Virus record (IMG/VR): IMGVR_UViG_3300032156_000040
Span: 1 to 36,295 of that record
Direction: 5' to 3' (one strand)
From: a virus
Length of the DNA stretch: 36,295 nucleotides
Part shown: piece by piece, positions 26,587 to 32,173 of the stretch
Layout of the letters: each line of letters opens with the position of its first letter
How positions within the stretch are numbered: the stretch's first letter is position 1
Made by a program: the position numbers and the translations under genes
Notes under the pieces: generated by a model
Database searches by the model: none
What the model saw: the letters and a program-made list of their open reading frames with translations, nothing else
What the model was told of the DNA's origin: nothing

Positions 26587-26973
26587 GTGGCACTAACCGG
26601 AAAGAGCGGCAGCGTATACATCGGCGCCAACAAGGTGGCCGAGATCAACCAGTGGTCGCTGGACTGCAAGGCCGACAACACCGACGTCACCAGCTTTGAC
26701 AGCAACGGCTGGAAGGAGTTTCTGGCCGGCCTCAAAGAGTGGTCCGGGTCGTTTGAAGGCAACCTCAAGCCCGACGATACCAATGGGCAGAAGGCGCTCA
26801 TCGACGCCTGGGTGGCCGGGACCTCCGTATCCCTGGAATGCCGGCTCGACGCGAGCAAGAAGTTCGCGGGTACCGCCCTGGTCAATTTCGGCATCGAGAT
26901 GCCCGTGGACGATAAGGCCGGCTTCAAGTGCGACTTCCAGGGGACCGGCGCGCTGACCCCGACGTTGACCTAA
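26587..26973 (+). CDS. Major tail (tube) protein
   Basis: 128 residues, GTG 26587 with GAGAGGTGATC upstream. Beta-rich protein beginning ALTGKSGSVYIGANKVAEI with NTDVTSFDSNGWKEF and WSGSFEGNL, the pattern of siphovirus tail tube proteins that polymerise as hexameric rings around the tape measure. Length is short but in range. A longer paralogue with the same GWKEF-x-L-x2-WSGS motif follows immediately. Confidence 0.82.
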   Translation: MALTGKSGSVYIGANKVAEINQWSLDCKADNTDVTSFDSNGWKEFLAGLKEWSGSFEGNLKPDDTNGQKALIDAWVAGTSVSLECRLDASKKFAGTALVNFGIEMPVDDKAGFKCDFQGTGALTPTLT

Positions 26974-26985
26974 GGGGTGGTCTGA

Positions 26986-27600
26986 ATGGCTATCAGCGGG
27001 AAGATCGGGGCGGTATACGTCTCTGACGTGGACACCGCCCCAGTGACCTTTGCGGACAAGGCGACGACCGCGGACGCCGAGCGCAAGCGCTACCAGGTTA
27101 CAGACCCAGCGTTCAGGTATTGGCCCCTAGATGAGCCGATCACGGTCAAGAAGAACGCCCAGGTGATCACGACAGGGTTCACGCTAGAGAGGGCCGGCGG
27201 GTTTGTGGTGTTCGACGCGCCCCTTCTGGTCGAGGACGTCGTTACCGTCTCCGGTAAGGCCCTTACGCTCGTCCAGTGCGGCGGCTTCTTCAACTGGAGC
27301 GCGGATCCCAAGGGTGAGGACGTGGACGCCACGACGTTCGCCTCGGAAGGTTGGAAGGAGTTTCAGCGGGTCCTGAGCGGCTGGAGCGGCAGCGCGGAGG
27401 CCTACTGGGGCGATGGTCGGTTCTTCGACAACCTGGGCGAGATCATCGTCGTGAAGCTCTTCGCGGACGCCGGCGCGTCCCAGCGCTGCCTCGAGGGATT
27501 CGCGCTCATCACTGCGGAGGGCATAGATACGGCCGTCGATGCCCTGGTCAAGGAGAAGATCGACTTCGAGGGAGTAGGATCTCTCTATCCACGTTTATAG
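26986..27600 (+). CDS. Second tail tube-like protein (paralogue)
   Basis: 204 residues, ATG 26986 with GGGGTGGTC upstream. Starts AISGKIGAVYVSDVD, similar to the preceding protein, and near residues 115-140 has DVDATTFASEGWKEF and WSGSAEAYW, aligned with DVTSFDSNGWKEF and WSGSFEG. Between them is an extra ~70-residue segment with beta-like content. Either a second tube component, a tail-tip or neck-proximal ring, or a decorated tube variant. Tandem duplication with an insertion is the simplest history. Confidence 0.7.
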   Translation: MAISGKIGAVYVSDVDTAPVTFADKATTADAERKRYQVTDPAFRYWPLDEPITVKKNAQVITTGFTLERAGGFVVFDAPLLVEDVVTVSGKALTLVQCGGFFNWSADPKGEDVDATTFASEGWKEFQRVLSGWSGSAEAYWGDGRFFDNLGEIIVVKLFADAGASQRCLEGFALITAEGIDTAVDALVKEKIDFEGVGSLYPRL

Positions 27601-27611
27601 GAGGGGAGAAG

Positions 27612-27830
27612 GTGAGATTCCGGATGGTCGTCCCGGAGATGACGGGCGCGGGCGCCCAGATCTTCCTGGACGGCAAGAAGCTTGAAGGGGTCACGAAGGT
27701 CGTCGTAGAGACGAGCGCGGATGACGTCAACCGTGTCTCGCTGTCGTTCATACCGGAGTCCATGGAAGTGGAATTGGCGGGCTCGACTGTGCACAGGGGC
27801 CAAGGAGGCAAGCCATGCGAAACAAGGTAG
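27612..27830 (+). CDS. Small tail-module protein
   Basis: 72 residues from GTG 27612, 5 nt after AGGAGGGG. Mostly beta (FRMVVPEMTGAGAQIFLDGK, VTKVVVETSADDVNRVSL). Unknown family; position after the tube genes and just before the assembly chaperone suggests a tail component or assembly helper. Longer in-frame readings upstream shadow the tube paralogue. Its stop overlaps the chaperone start by 16 bp. Confidence 0.55.
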   Translation: MRFRMVVPEMTGAGAQIFLDGKKLEGVTKVVVETSADDVNRVSLSFIPESMEVELAGSTVHRGQGGKPCETR

Positions 27831-28159
27831 TTACCGTCAACGGGAAAGAGGTCAACGTCCAGGAGAAACGGATCGGGGAGCTCGAGAAGCTGATCGCCGA
27901 CTTGTTCCCCGGTTCGGGCGGCAACGTCACCAAGATAGACATCGCCAAATTCCTGGAGAAGGCAGACACCAATGACCTCCTCTACAAGAAGCTGCCGACC
28001 ATGTTCCCTGAACTCACGAAAGAGGATGTGAAGAACGCCTACATGAGCGAGCTCGAGGGTCTATTGGAGGCGTTCGTCGACGTCAGTTTTTTCGGCATCA
28101 AGAGGCTGGTGAAGCCCCTCCTGGGCTTGATTCAGACTGGCTTGACGCAGAAACAGTAG
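27815..28159 (+). CDS. Tail assembly chaperone, short form (gpG-like)
   Basis: 114 residues, ATG 27815 with AAGGAGGC 6 nt upstream. Begins RNKVVTVNGKEVNVQEKRIG, then helical (LIADLFPGSGG, NAYMSELEGLLEAFVDVSFF). Placed between tail tube and tape measure, the slot of the gpG/gpT-type chaperones that coat the tape measure before tube polymerisation. A slippery heptamer near the 3' end allows a longer -1 frame product. Confidence 0.8.
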   Translation: MRNKVVTVNGKEVNVQEKRIGELEKLIADLFPGSGGNVTKIDIAKFLEKADTNDLLYKKLPTMFPELTKEDVKNAYMSELEGLLEAFVDVSFFGIKRLVKPLLGLIQTGLTQKQ

Positions 28160-28509
28160 TCCTGCTGGCCAGAGAGTTCGGCTGGACTCTCGACCAGATC
28201 AAGGCCCACAGGCAGAGCGAACTCGCGGCCATCCTCCTCGAGCTGAAGCGGCAGAAGACCGCCGAAGAATATCACGAGCAGCGCAACAGGTGGGCGTTCC
28301 TGGCTTCAGTGATAGCTAATGGTTTTTCGGCGATCGCCGGGATGTTCTCGCGGCGGAGGCCCAAGATGACCTCGCCTGACGACTTCATCGACAAGGACTT
28401 CAAGCGGTTGGCGGAAGAGCTGTACGGGGGAGCCCGGTCCGGAAGGAAACCGGACTGGGCCTCTCTCATTGAGAACGCCAGGGCGAAGGGGCTCAAAGGA
28501 CCGTGGTAG
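27815..28509 (+). CDS. Tail assembly chaperone, frameshifted long form (gpGT-like)
   Basis: Reading 93 codons of the short form to 28093, then slipping -1, gives a 231-residue fusion. The -1 frame is open without stops from 28093 to TAG at 28509 and continues as HQEAGEAPPGLDSDWLDAE, then REFGWTLDQIKAHRQSELAA, a helical domain typical of the T part of gpGT. The downstream frame has no good start of its own except ATG 28309, which would cut off most of it. Not a sequencing frameshift: this two-frame layout is normal for siphovirus chaperones. Confidence 0.82.
28087..28128 (+). promoter_or_regulatory. Programmed -1 ribosomal frameshift site
   Basis: T TTT TTC (28087-28093, spaces mark the zero frame) is a canonical X-XXY-YYZ slippery heptamer. 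Eighteen nt downstream, AAGCCC (28112-28117) pairs with GGGCTT (28123-28128) over a 5-nt loop and may pause the ribosome; the distance is longer than usual. No internal SD was seen that would act as stimulator. Confidence 0.8.
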
Positions 28510-28515
28510 GGGTTC

Positions 28516-28848
28516 TCAAAACAGACATCTTACCATGGTCTTGTAGATCTTCTCATCGACTTCTAGCAGGCTTTTCCCGCCGTTCTTGAACTGGACAGCA
28601 ATGATGTAAGCGTCCTTCGTTTTTGAAGATAAAGCTCCGGCGAGCATGCCTGCTGGTCCGAGAAAAAAGCCACCGACAAGAGCGCGGCTAGCGGCGCTCG
28701 TAGTGCTCTTGGCGTGGGTTTCGTCTACCACCTCATATGTCTCGACATTGTTCTTGTCTAACCAGATGCTCTTTGTAAGGCCGGTCGAAATCTGGGGTAT
28801 GCCAAGCACCTGCATGACAGAGCAACCTGCGTGGTCCCCTGCGATCAC
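28516..28848 (-). CDS. Minus-strand small protein with glycine-rich hydrophobic segment
   Basis: 110 residues from GTG at 28846-28848, or 99 from ATG at 28813-28815; neither SD is strong. The middle has ASRALVGGFFLGPAGMLAGA, a Gly-rich hydrophobic stretch that could insert in a membrane, then beta-like AYIIAVQFKNGGKSLLEV. This combination recalls small unnamed bacterial proteins with a GPAG-type motif. Composition is clearly less GC-rich than the flanking tail genes, and it is transcribed against them between the chaperone and tape measure, an unusual place for a gene; a recent acquisition is likely. Confidence 0.6.
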   Translation of the reverse strand: MIAGDHAGCSVMQVLGIPQISTGLTKSIWLDKNNVETYEVVDETHAKSTTSAASRALVGGFFLGPAGMLAGALSSKTKDAYIIAVQFKNGGKSLLEVDEKIYKTMVRCLF

Positions 28849-28930
28849 CTTGTTTCTTGCCGTCCTTCACGCACCTCTTTTCGGTACGTTTCGATTGCTG
28901 CTCGGGAATTCCTCCCATCGGAGGTGAACG

Positions 28931-31900
28931 ATGATGAAGGTCGGCGAGCTCTTCGTCCGGCTGGCGATGGACTACAGCCAGTATGACAAGGACGAGACTA
29001 CGGCCAAGCACCGGGTCGAGGGCCTTGGTGGCTCCCTTTCCGGGATCCTGAAGAACGCCTTCTCGTTCACGGTCGGCATGGGCTTCTTTCAGGCTATCCA
29101 GGCCGGGTTCAAGGCCACCGTGGGCTCGGCTCTGGGCTTCAATGTAATGGTGCAGAACGCCCAGATAGGGTTCAAGACCATGCTGGGGAGTGCGTCGGCT
29201 GCCGAAGCCATGCTGACCGATCTGGCTGATTTCGCGGCGAAGAATCAGTTTGAGCTGCCTGACCTCCTCGACGCTGCGAAGAGGATGCTAGCCATGGGGT
29301 TCGCCGCTGACGACGTCTTGCCCACGCTGAAGTCGGTGGGCGATGCCGCGGCAGGGCTGGGCCTGGGGGCAGCGGGAGTGAACCGCATCATCCTGGCCCT
29401 CGGACAGATGCAGGCAAAAGGCAAGGTGTCCGGGGAGGAAATGCGGCAACTGATGGAAGCCGGCGTGCCGGCGTGGAAGATCCTGGCCCAGGCTATGGGC
29501 AAGTCTGTTCAGGAAGTCACGGCCCTGGGCGAAAAAGGGCTCCTTCCCGCGGACAAGGCCATCCAGGCGCTCGTCGCCGGGATGGAGGCACGATTCCCCG
29601 ACATGATGAAGCAGATGCAGAACGGTTGGCGTGGGGTCACGTCCGCGATCAAGAGCGTCTGGCAGATGACCCTCGGAGCTCTGACCTCGGGGCTATTCAA
29701 GAGCGCGAATGACTGGCTGAAGAAGGTCAGGGACGTGGCGACCGGCTTCTATGAGGCGTTCCAAAAGGGCGGGCTGACGTACGCCATAAGCCAGGCATTT
29801 GGACCACAGGCCGCCGCCAGCATCCAGACGGTAGCGTCGGTGCTGCGCGGGTTGTGGGGCGTGGTCGTCGGCGTGTGCAGGACCATCATAGCCAACTGGA
29901 GTGTGATCGGGCCACTAACCGCGTGGGTGGTCAAGGCGTTTCTCGCATTCAGGGTCGCAATGCTCGTTGTCAATCTCGCGACTAGCGCAGTACGGACCTT
30001 CACGCGAGCCAATCTGGCCATGCATGGCGCGCTGACCACGGGCGCCGGATTGCTGAAAATCATCAGCGATGTCGTGCTGTACTATAAGGTGCTGATGGCC
30101 GAGGCTGCTGTGACAACATCAATTACCACGGTTGCAGTTCATGGTCTACGATCAGCTCTTTTGGCTCTGTATACGACTCTGGGGCCGATCGGCATAGCGT
30201 TGATCGCCATTTCCGCCGTGCTCATGGCGGGCACGTCGCTCTGGAGCAAGTACAGCAGCCAAGTGCAGGCAGCCGCGCAGAAGGCGCGGATGGACAAGAT
30301 CGCTGCCAGTCAGAAAGCGTACGTGGATAGCGTCAACAAGGCCGCCACGGGTACGAACGCTCAGGCAGACGCTCTGGGTAATCTTGGCAAGGCTTCTCAG
30401 GACAACCTGCAGTCTTTCGACGAGGTCCATCAGCTCATGGACCAGACGGCGGACGCGACTATGCCTGGAATGCCGGACACGGGTGCCGGCGCGCCCGAGT
30501 TCCCCGAGTTCGAGATGCCGGAGGATCTGTTTGCCGGGACCGAGATCGAGGCGATGTCGTTCGGCGAGAAGCTGAAAGGTTTCTTCGCTTGGCTCTGGGA
30601 CGGCATCAAGGGTGGGGCTGTCAGCGCCTGGAATGGCATCACAGGGTTCCTGAGCAAAACCTGGCAGGGAATAGTCAATCTGACTCGACCCATCTGGGAG
30701 CCTCTGGCGCGGTTCTTCACTACGCTCTGGGCGGGCATTCAGGCAGTCGCCGCGACCGTCTGGACCGTAATAGGCCCGGTGTTGTCCGGGATCTGGACCG
30801 GCATTGTCACGGCAGCTCAGACCGTATGGGGAACGCTAGGCCCATTCTTCTCCATGCTCTGGGCAGGCATCAAAGCCGTAGTTCTGGGTGTCTGGAGCGT
30901 GCTCAGTACCGTGCTCCCGCCGATATGGACCGGCATCGTTACCGTCGCCCAGACAGTCTGGAGCGTCCTGGATCCGTTCTTCAGTGGGCTATGGCAGGCC
31001 ATCAAGACGGCGGCGACAGTCGTTTGGGGACTCATACAGTACGTCCTCGGGACGTCCTGGTTCGCGACCGTGGCTATGGCGCAAGCTGTCTGGTCCGCCT
31101 TGGGGCCGTTCTTCGGCGGTCTGTGGGAGGGCATCAAGACGGTGGCCACTGTCGCCTGGAGCCTCATTCAGTACTTCCTTACGGCGTACTGGTTCCGCAT
31201 CGTCGAGTCCGCCAAAGCGGTGTGGACTGTTCTAGGCCCGTTCTTCTCCGGGCTCTGGGAAGGTGTCAAGGCCGTTGCACTGGGCGTCTGGGGCATCCTG
31301 AGCGCGGTACTTCCTCCGCTCTGGCGCGGTATTGTCGCAGTTGCCGAGGTAATCTGGGCGGTACTACGGCCGTTCTTCGAAGCGCTGTGGGGTTCCGTGA
31401 AATGGATCTTTGAGAATGTATGGCGACCCATCCAAGCATTCCTCGAAGGCGTCTGGAACGGCATCAAGGTCGTGGCGGAAACGACATGGGGAGTCATCGA
31501 GCAGGTCATCGTCGACCCCTTCGCGGCTGCCAAGACTACGGTCGAGTCTATCGCTGATAAGATCCGGTCCACGGTTACTGCCGCGTGGGACGCGATCGTC
31601 GCCGGCGTCAAGGCCGTGAAGGATACCCTCTACGAGTACATCGTCGAGCCGTTCGTGAAAGCCAAGAACTACATCGAGGGCATCATCGCAAAGGCCAGAG
31701 AGTGGGGCAGGAACCTGGTCAGAGCCTTCACCGGCGGTGTGCGAACGGAGACTCCCGCAGCCGTCCAAGCGGCGGGAGACGTCGTCGACGGCATATCAAA
31801 CCAAATGGGGTTTGAGTCTCCCGCCAAAGAGGGTCCCGGCCGCACCGCCGACCGGTGGGCGCCCAACTTAATGAAGATGTACGCCCAAGGCATCCTGGCC

Positions 31901-32173
31901 AACGTGAACATCGTTAAGAATGCAGCCGGCGCGGTGGCTCAGAGCCTGGCGTCGATGGCCGTCGTACCTAGCCCGGCATTCGCGGGGGTGGGCGCGAGCG
32001 GCCTAGGCACAGGCAGGCAGCCTGGCGCGTCCTCGCTCGCGGCGGGGCCGACCCCCGAACTCCACCTTCACGTCGGCACTCTCGTCGCCGACAAACAGGG
32101 GCTTAAGCAGTTGGAGCGCATGCTCCGCGAATTCCGGGTGAGCGAAGACCAGCGTGTAGGCCAGGAGAGGTGA
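28931..32173 (+). CDS. Tail tape measure protein
   Basis: 1080 residues, ATG 28931 with GGAGGTGAACG upstream. The N-terminal domain (about residues 60-230; MLTDLADFAAKNQFELPDLL, MLAMGFAADDV, GKVSGEEMRQLMEAGVPAW) is the conserved TMP_N-type region. Hydrophobic segments follow (about 300-440), then residues 556-853 carry a tryptophan every 11 residues, then charged helices and a Gly/Ala/Ser-rich end with QMGFESPAKEGPGRTADRW, where relatives often have a processing region. It sets tail length and is ejected ahead of DNA. Its size fits a siphovirus tail of moderate length. Confidence 0.93.
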   Translation: MMKVGELFVRLAMDYSQYDKDETTAKHRVEGLGGSLSGILKNAFSFTVGMGFFQAIQAGFKATVGSALGFNVMVQNAQIGFKTMLGSASAAEAMLTDLADFAAKNQFELPDLLDAAKRMLAMGFAADDVLPTLKSVGDAAAGLGLGAAGVNRIILALGQMQAKGKVSGEEMRQLMEAGVPAWKILAQAMGKSVQEVTALGEKGLLPADKAIQALVAGMEARFPDMMKQMQNGWRGVTSAIKSVWQMTLGALTSGLFKSANDWLKKVRDVATGFYEAFQKGGLTYAISQAFGPQAAASIQTVASVLRGLWGVVVGVCRTIIANWSVIGPLTAWVVKAFLAFRVAMLVVNLATSAVRTFTRANLAMHGALTTGAGLLKIISDVVLYYKVLMAEAAVTTSITTVAVHGLRSALLALYTTLGPIGIALIAISAVLMAGTSLWSKYSSQVQAAAQKARMDKIAASQKAYVDSVNKAATGTNAQADALGNLGKASQDNLQSFDEVHQLMDQTADATMPGMPDTGAGAPEFPEFEMPEDLFAGTEIEAMSFGEKLKGFFAWLWDGIKGGAVSAWNGITGFLSKTWQGIVNLTRPIWEPLARFFTTLWAGIQAVAATVWTVIGPVLSGIWTGIVTAAQTVWGTLGPFFSMLWAGIKAVVLGVWSVLSTVLPPIWTGIVTVAQTVWSVLDPFFSGLWQAIKTAATVVWGLIQYVLGTSWFATVAMAQAVWSALGPFFGGLWEGIKTVATVAWSLIQYFLTAYWFRIVESAKAVWTVLGPFFSGLWEGVKAVALGVWGILSAVLPPLWRGIVAVAEVIWAVLRPFFEALWGSVKWIFENVWRPIQAFLEGVWNGIKVVAETTWGVIEQVIVDPFAAAKTTVESIADKIRSTVTAAWDAIVAGVKAVKDTLYEYIVEPFVKAKNYIEGIIAKAREWGRNLVRAFTGGVRTETPAAVQAAGDVVDGISNQMGFESPAKEGPGRTADRWAPNLMKMYAQGILANVNIVKNAAGAVAQSLASMAVVPSPAFAGVGASGLGTGRQPGASSLAAGPTPELHLHVGTLVADKQGLKQLERMLREFRVSEDQRVGQER
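30596..31489 (+). repeat. Exact 11-residue tryptophan repeat in the tape measure
   Basis: Twenty-eight Trp codons stand exactly 33 bp apart, from TGG 30596 to TGG 31487, with no indel. Units alternate types such as WTGIVTAAQTV, WGTLGPFFSML, WAGIKAVVLGV and WSVLSTVLPPI, and the GPFFS-x-L unit returns about every four units, a 44-residue higher-order period. Confidence 0.92.

What the first reader, a model, noticed from the sequence alone, without database searches (positions are those of the whole stretch)
28087..28509. Programmed -1 frameshift in the tail chaperone gene
TTTTTTC in the correct zero-frame phasing and a stop-free -1 frame up to 28509 give a 231-residue gpGT-like protein. A 6-bp stem begins 18 nt downstream. 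Annotation programs would call two unrelated genes or miss the second.
Basis: seen in the sequence. Interest (0 to 1): 0.55.

Follow-up and report, generated by a model that had tools for sequence, protein, structure and literature searches.

The report
Frameshift makes a phage tail chaperone
A virus of bacteria appears to make a short and a long version of a tail-building helper protein by letting a few ribosomes slip back one base, a known trick whose exact slip site has here moved by one codon between relatives.

Summary
T TTT TTC (28087-28093) sits in the right phase near the end of a 114-codon gene before the tape-measure gene. The -1 frame runs to 28509 and gives a 231-residue G-T product. 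In the window alone the heptamer is weak evidence (p = 0.185, synonymous shuffle), but comparison is strong. Of 57 distinct sequences (window included), 53 carry a canonical heptamer at this place: A AAT TTT only in 25, overlapping A AAT TTT TTN in 21, T TTT TTC only in 7, the window among them. Another has A AAA AAA a little further on; three sisters keep AAT TTT and have a covarying hairpin. So the exact heptamer is not conserved, but a slip site is. A Shine-Dalgarno-like sequence upstream is better supported as stimulator: 39 of 57 against 25.3 expected. This is a new member of the lambda G/GT kind. The modest novelty is the slip-site move through an overlapping double heptamer and an apparent swap of stimulator between clades. 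In passing: a variable gene slot between this gene and the tape measure.

The parts
27815..28159 (+). gene G: tail assembly chaperone, zero frame, 114 aa
   Evidence: ORF; relatives; phrog_1442 'tail assembly chaperone' matches 2 of 35 members; fold search in a viral library gives weak matches (best E 0.018) of which 12 of the best 50 are named tail/tape-measure chaperone or frameshift protein G
28087..28093 (+). slippery heptamer T TTT TTC (site 2)
28084..28090 (+). place of the usual heptamer A AAT TTT (site 1), here C AGT TTT, not a canonical heptamer
   Evidence: 46 of 57 distinct sequences have A AAT TTT here
28066..28070 (+). Shine-Dalgarno-like GGAGG, 13 nt before site 1, 16 nt before site 2; proposed stimulator
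28093..28509 (+). T part in the -1 frame, 138 codons and stop; frame open from 28012
28112..28128 (+).
   Evidence: all six pairs in 1 of 36 representatives, taken at the same distance from the slip
26587..26973 (+). major tail (tube) protein, upstream neighbour
   Evidence: Phage_tail_2 E 2.5e-13, phrog_1407 E 2.8e-28
28931..32173 (+). tape measure protein, downstream neighbour
   Evidence: TMP_3 E 1.2e-30; phrog_12798 E 2.8e-53

Best explanation
This is a gpG/gpGT-type tail assembly chaperone gene. Most ribosomes read G and stop at 28159. A minority, with tRNAs on TTT and TTC, slip back one base onto TTT TTT and read the T frame to 28509, giving G-T in a small proportion. By analogy with lambda, G would bind the tape measure protein and the T part of G-T would bring in the tail tube protein (inferred). 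In the window the slip is probably helped by a Shine-Dalgarno-like GGAGG 16 nt upstream that pairs with 16S rRNA, and not by the 6-bp stem. The ancestral site in this family was probably A AAT TTT one codon earlier. An overlapping form A AAT TTT TTC, which gives the same fusion protein by either slip, probably let the site move without loss of frameshifting. Shown here: phase, open frame, conservation of a slip site and of T, lack of stem conservation. Inferred: the slip itself, its rate, the role of the GGAGG, the direction of change and the protein functions.
For: Of 57 distinct sequences, 53 have a canonical heptamer at the same place and 54 have one in the overlap; the -1 frame is open from the site past the zero-frame stop in 57 of 57. 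Of 104 columns with enough pairs, residues 91 and 92 have the highest synonymous identity, 1.00 and 0.94 against a mean of 0.43 (sd 0.17). Val90 is GTA in 46 of 55 rows with Val there, against 114 of 408 elsewhere; Phe92 is TTT in 56 of 57, against 138 of 265 elsewhere. The -1 frame encodes a conserved protein (33 rows). In the window its conserved block lies before any in-frame ATG/GTG/TTG. The gene lies between tail tube and tape measure. The window's clade of 7 (SH-aLRT 99) is 6 with site 2 only and L011 with both sites. SD-like element by the Sharma criterion: 39 of 57, expected 25.3 (sd 3.1), 0 of 500 shuffles reach it. Glu85 is GAG 28: GAA 4, against 256: 325 for other Glu. U_UU.U_UU.C is on the list of motifs chosen as shifting above 0.10% without stimulators in E. 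coli (PMC4066793, section 20).
Against: No translation data. The heptamer alone has an 18.5% chance rate in this gene. L037, L038 and L112 keep an open -1 frame without a canonical heptamer. A_AA.U_UU.U, the commonest site here, is not on that E. coli list, though the text calls R_RR.U_UU.Y motifs shifty. Family matches of G to known chaperones are weak; T of the window matches no PHROG. 18 of 57 lack the SD-like element, and relatedness of rows inflates the SD and codon counts. In the window the GGAGG lies at the far edge of the 6-17 nt range. Codon choice at residue 93 may also reflect the overlapping T frame.
Confidence: 0.9

Rival explanations
1. T is a separate protein started inside the -1 frame (internal or coupled initiation), with no fusion.
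For: 17 of 57 distinct sequences have an ATG/GTG/TTG in the T frame within the first 27 codons after the slip, near the end of G, and 17 more in the next 14 codons. The public record of TVCOM_ph1 is annotated this way.
Against: In the window the first such codon is 72 codons after the slip, in L002 91, in L024 and L026 73, beyond the conserved LAREFGWT block. Separate initiation would not explain the slip-site codons.
Confidence: 0.05
2. The frame change is made by RNA polymerase slippage on the T run, not by the ribosome.
For: The window has six T in a row; tandem forms have A3 followed by six or more T.
Against: 25 of 57 have only A3T4, short for polymerase slippage (recalled, not tested). 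The codon phase of the motif is fixed, which slippage does not need.
Confidence: 0.02
3. The stimulator in the window is the downstream structure, including the stem named by the reader.
For: A 17-pair hairpin with compensatory changes follows the site by 6 nt in 8 distant rows: 6 of 17 pairs changed on both sides (20 of 500 shuffles reach that), covariation score reached by 0 of 500, 92.6% of cells paired (the structure came from five of the eight rows). The window's own downstream fold is slightly better than shuffled (z -1.46).
Against: Four rows of the window's clade: consensus fold z -0.47, 33 of 100 column shuffles as good. The named stem is complete in 1 of 36.
Confidence: 0.15

Closest known systems
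Phage lambda G / GT (and the conserved tail-gene frameshift of long-tailed phages)
   Same: -1 frameshift near the end of the gene before the tape measure, giving short G and long G-T (passages of PMC5009743)
   Different: different heptamer (lambda's own is recalled, not looked up); lambda G itself was not compared here, and no named chaperone family matches strongly; SD-like element upstream; slip site moved by one codon among relatives
HK97 gp13/gp14 and a GeneTack cluster of HK97-like tail chaperones (7% frameshifting measured)
   Same: tail chaperone frameshift gene (cluster and 7% from a passage of PMC3711429; gp13/gp14 roles recalled)
   Different: HK97 was not compared directly; no strong family match found here
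E. coli dnaX and IS911 -1 frameshift signals
   Same: heptamer with an upstream SD-like stimulator (passages of PMC4066793 and PMC3711429)
   Different: those also have a downstream stem-loop; none is conserved in the window's clade
Terrisporobacter phage TVCOM_ph1 CDS0013/CDS0014 (PP197245.1)
   Same: homologous G (39% identity) with A AAT TTT and T in the -1 frame
   Different: has the long hairpin, lacks the SD-like element; annotated as two hypothetical proteins

Membership tests
gpG/gpGT tail assembly chaperone with -1 frameshift | gene pair between major tail protein and tape measure protein | tested here: met
gpG/gpGT tail assembly chaperone with -1 frameshift | second frame overlaps the end of the first in -1 and is conserved as protein | tested here: met
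   open in 57 of 57
gpG/gpGT tail assembly chaperone with -1 frameshift | conserved slip site in correct phase | tested here: met
   53 of 57 at one place; exact heptamer varies
gpG/gpGT tail assembly chaperone with -1 frameshift | homology of G to a known chaperone | tested here: inconclusive
   phrog_1442 'tail assembly chaperone' in 2 of 35 members, best E 1.9e-4; the window's own best hit is phrog_7947, unknown function, E 0.0044; no chaperone model in Pfam; no PDB fold match at E 0.001; weak but chaperone-rich viral fold matches
gpG/gpGT tail assembly chaperone with -1 frameshift | both G and G-T made, in a needed ratio; G binds tape measure, T binds tube | not testable with these tools
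   needs expression and binding assays
SD-stimulated bacterial -1 frameshift signal (dnaX/IS911 type) | SD-like sequence 6-17 nt before second base of the motif | tested here: met
   window yes, at 17 nt; 39 of 57
SD-stimulated bacterial -1 frameshift signal (dnaX/IS911 type) | conserved downstream stem | tested here: not met
   window clade z -0.47; 1 of 36 keep the named stem; so not filed as dnaX-type in full

The most novel reading that the evidence does not exclude
One homologous frameshift signal has kept its job while both of its parts were replaced. The slip site moved one codon downstream at least twice through an overlapping double heptamer (A AAT TTT TTC) whose two slips give the same protein. 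The stimulator differs between clades: an upstream SD-like element in most rows, and a downstream hairpin in a clade (Terrisporobacter and Clostridium among its hosts) that mostly lacks the SD-like element and in three members also lacks the full heptamer.
Probability: 0.45. Interest if true: 0.55.

Novelty: new member of a known kind. Interest (0 to 1): 0.4.

Why it matters
It proposes a function for a gene pair left unnamed in the one public phage record found and in most of the PHROGs it matches. Three queries of this family hit one record among 50,697 phage records at E 0.01, so it is almost unsampled among isolates. The relatives, with single, double and lost heptamers and with either SD-like element or hairpin, are a natural series in which the contribution of each part of a bacterial -1 frameshift signal can be measured on one homologous gene.

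Tried and rejected
Rejected: the named 6-bp stem as a conserved stimulator. Separate initiation of T in the window. No structural match in the PDB for the G model (mean pLDDT 77; best Foldseek E 1.3) and no useful PDB sequence match (best E 0.03). Pfam gave a Gal4_dimer hit below its cut-off in 8 of 35 members, taken as chance. A search of 391 genomes of the class of the Caldicoprobacter genome found 2 with a relative, one of them the genome it started from.

A trade-off of SD-like element against hairpin (1 of 8 hairpin rows with SD, 38 of 49 others; Fisher p 0.0008) rests on essentially one clade: 1 independent pair on starred branches, 2 on all branches, sign test p 1, so the tree test cannot confirm it. 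Preference for TTC at Phe93 (20 of 21 against 48 of 88 elsewhere in the same genes, p 0.0003) and TTR at Leu93 (7 of 8 against 39 of 121, p 0.003) may mean that site 2 is kept in tandem forms, but the overlapping T frame is another possible cause.

Papers: PMC5009743 passages and part 1 of 4 of its section 9; PMC10885494 passages; PMC3711429 passages; PMC4066793 abstract and outline, sections 16, 17, 20 and passages; PMC10884400 passages; others as search listings only. Lambda's heptamer, the HK97 gp13/gp14 roles and the HK97 gp15 position are recalled; the HK97 gp15 paper was not held. In the listings of searches for tandem or overlapping slippery sites I saw no paper on such sites in tail genes (10 of 313 papers listed; 2; none found; 1); this does not show that it is unpublished.

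Full report
The window is a 36,295-base virus record, GC 63%. From 26587 to 32173 it carries tail genes: a tube protein (Phage_tail_2), a second tube-like protein, the gene in question, a small minus-strand ORF, then the tape measure protein.

What is there. G (27815-28159) encodes 114 residues. Its codons 90-93 are GTC AGT TTT TTC, so T TTT TTC at 28087-28093 is in slippage phase. The -1 frame is open from 28012 to 28509 with no ATG, GTG or TTG before 28309. A slip gives 93 + 138 = 231 residues with junction FF-RHQEAG. On its own, however, a canonical heptamer would fall in this overlap in 18.5% of synonymous shuffles.

Relatives. Of these 113 with the window, 109 have a readable G and 57 are distinct. 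In 57 of 57 the -1 frame is open from the site past the end of G. At the codons homologous to 90-93, 25 have A AAT TTT only ('site 1'), 21 have both A AAT TTT and an overlapping T TTT TTN, 7 have T TTT TTC only ('site 2'; window, L002, L007, L010, L016, L031, L041), and 4 have neither. Of these 4, L035 has A AAA AAA a few codons on, and the sisters L037, L038 and L112 keep AAT TTT after GCC, GCT or GTT.

Selection on the site. Among 36 representatives, synonymous identity is highest of 104 columns at residues 91 and 92 (1.00 and 0.94; mean 0.43, sd 0.17). Val90 is GTA in 46 of 55 rows with Val, against 114 of 408 elsewhere (Fisher p 2e-15), and Phe92 is TTT in 56 of 57, against 138 of 265 elsewhere. 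Relatedness of rows makes such p-values too small, but the contrast is large. 34 of 36 representatives have a heptamer in the overlap, where 14.0 are expected.

Movement of the site. On a tree of G and T without the slip columns (quick search, SH-aLRT only, several long branches and open forks), the window lies in a clade of 7 (support 99): six with site 2 only, and L011 with both. L031, also site 2 only, groups with two tandem forms (support 91). Presence of site 1 needs at least 5 changes. By my reading of the drawn tree these are two in the window's clade (one may be a regain in L011), one in L031, one in L035, which has A AAA AAA, and one in the hairpin sisters L037, L038 and L112. In A AAT TTT TTC, slipping at either site gives Val-Asn-Phe-Phe-Arg, so the move need not change the protein; in the TTA and TTG forms the two slips differ by one residue. 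Of 21 tandem rows 13 have TTC, 6 TTA, 1 TTG and 1 TTT. The direction from site 1 to site 2 is inferred.

Stimulators. Consensus folds are no better than column shuffles in four rows of the window's clade (z -0.47), eight site-1 rows (-0.61) and eleven rows of mainly tandem type (0.45), but strong in five distant rows (z -6.6, 0 of 100). Eight rows (L006, L013, L014, L037, L038, L112, L086, L087) have individual fold z of -2.9 to -6.4. On an alignment of these, a 17-pair stem starting 6 nt after AAT TTT has 92.6% of cells paired and 6 pairs changed on both sides; sliding the partner by 1 to 3 columns gives 41 to 64%. Upstream, SD-like sequences ending 13 nt before site 1 occur 39 times against 25.1 expected (z 4.5), with smaller excesses at 12, 14 and 17 nt, none at 25 nt where residue 81 gives similar letters (22 against 20.2), and a deficit at 26 nt (2 against 7.2). 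[quoted passage not shown] Glu85 uses GAG 28: GAA 4. The window has GGAGG at 28066-28070, at the far limit of that range for its site 2. Only 1 of 8 hairpin rows has the SD-like element, against 38 of 49 others; the hairpin rows are essentially one clade, so this is a lead and not proof.

Identity of G. Sequence matches are weak: phrog_1442 'tail assembly chaperone' in 2 of 35 members, unnamed phrog_7608 in 10. The model (beta hairpin then helices, mean pLDDT 77) finds nothing in the PDB. In the viral library the matches are weak (best E 0.018), but 12 of the best 50 are named tail assembly or tape measure chaperone or 'frameshift protein G'. Gene position and architecture carry most of the weight.

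Mechanism and comparison. The parts match the lambda G/GT scheme as reviewed in PMC5009743: most ribosomes make G, few make G-T, and their ratio matters for tail assembly. U_UU.U_UU.C is among the motifs selected as shifting above 0.10% unaided in E. coli; A_AA.U_UU.U is not on that list, but R_RR.U_UU.Y motifs are noted as shifty. The U_UU.U tetramer left in L037, L038 and L112 is of a type that shifted there only with a strong downstream structure, which fits their hairpin.

Verdict. The finding is real and correctly read in its main point; it is a new member of a known kind. What a specialist may find worth having is the family series: single, overlapping and relocated heptamers, with the stimulator on either side.

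Noticed in passing
window 28510-28930; L002 4696-5466; also L003, L006-L008, L011, L013, L014, L017, L020, L025, L028, L030, L031, L036, L037, L062, L073, L086, L095, L097, L099, L100: Variable gene slot between the T stop and the tape measure start: 24 of 45 measurable distinct sequences (12 of 57 not measurable) have an insert of 405-1127 bp, 21 have none. The longest ORF (70 aa or more) is on the minus strand in 16, plus in 7, absent in 1. Contents differ even between the window and L002 (94% identical in G). Pfam on 20 of 25 slot proteins: SHOCT, copper-amine-oxidase-N, DUF4352, BLIP/DUF3862, TM2, weak zinc ribbons, several with none; many have hydrophobic stretches. Of 25, one or two match PHROGs named superinfection exclusion (phrog_8545, phrog_4980; 25 of 39 families shown); PADLOC gave three weak single hits. 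HK97 gp15, a superinfection-exclusion moron, is recalled to lie at the same place. A possible hotspot of prophage-expressed exclusion genes beside the tape measure gene.
   Followed up: partly
window 28516-28848 (-): 110-aa minus-strand ORF in that slot, phrog_20920 (E 1.5e-34, unknown function); among the loci held a homologue only in L025/L064, two loci of one contig (66% identity).
   Followed up: partly
window 26587-26973 and 26986-27600 (+): Two adjacent tail-tube-like genes, 37% identical over 109 aa, both matching phrog_1407. Queries hit 113 and 99 loci, but each also hits its paralogue, so these are upper counts.
   Followed up: partly
L085 and L092: Both lie in or next to the hairpin clade but have the overlapping double heptamer and no hairpin (fold z 0.47 and -0.38), as if the double heptamer could stand in for the hairpin; only two rows.
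   Followed up: no
L034, T frame from about 1490 to the end of the locus: The T frame stays open for 1021 codons to the end of the locus, past the place where the tape measure gene starts: T and tape measure fused, or a sequence error.
   Followed up: no
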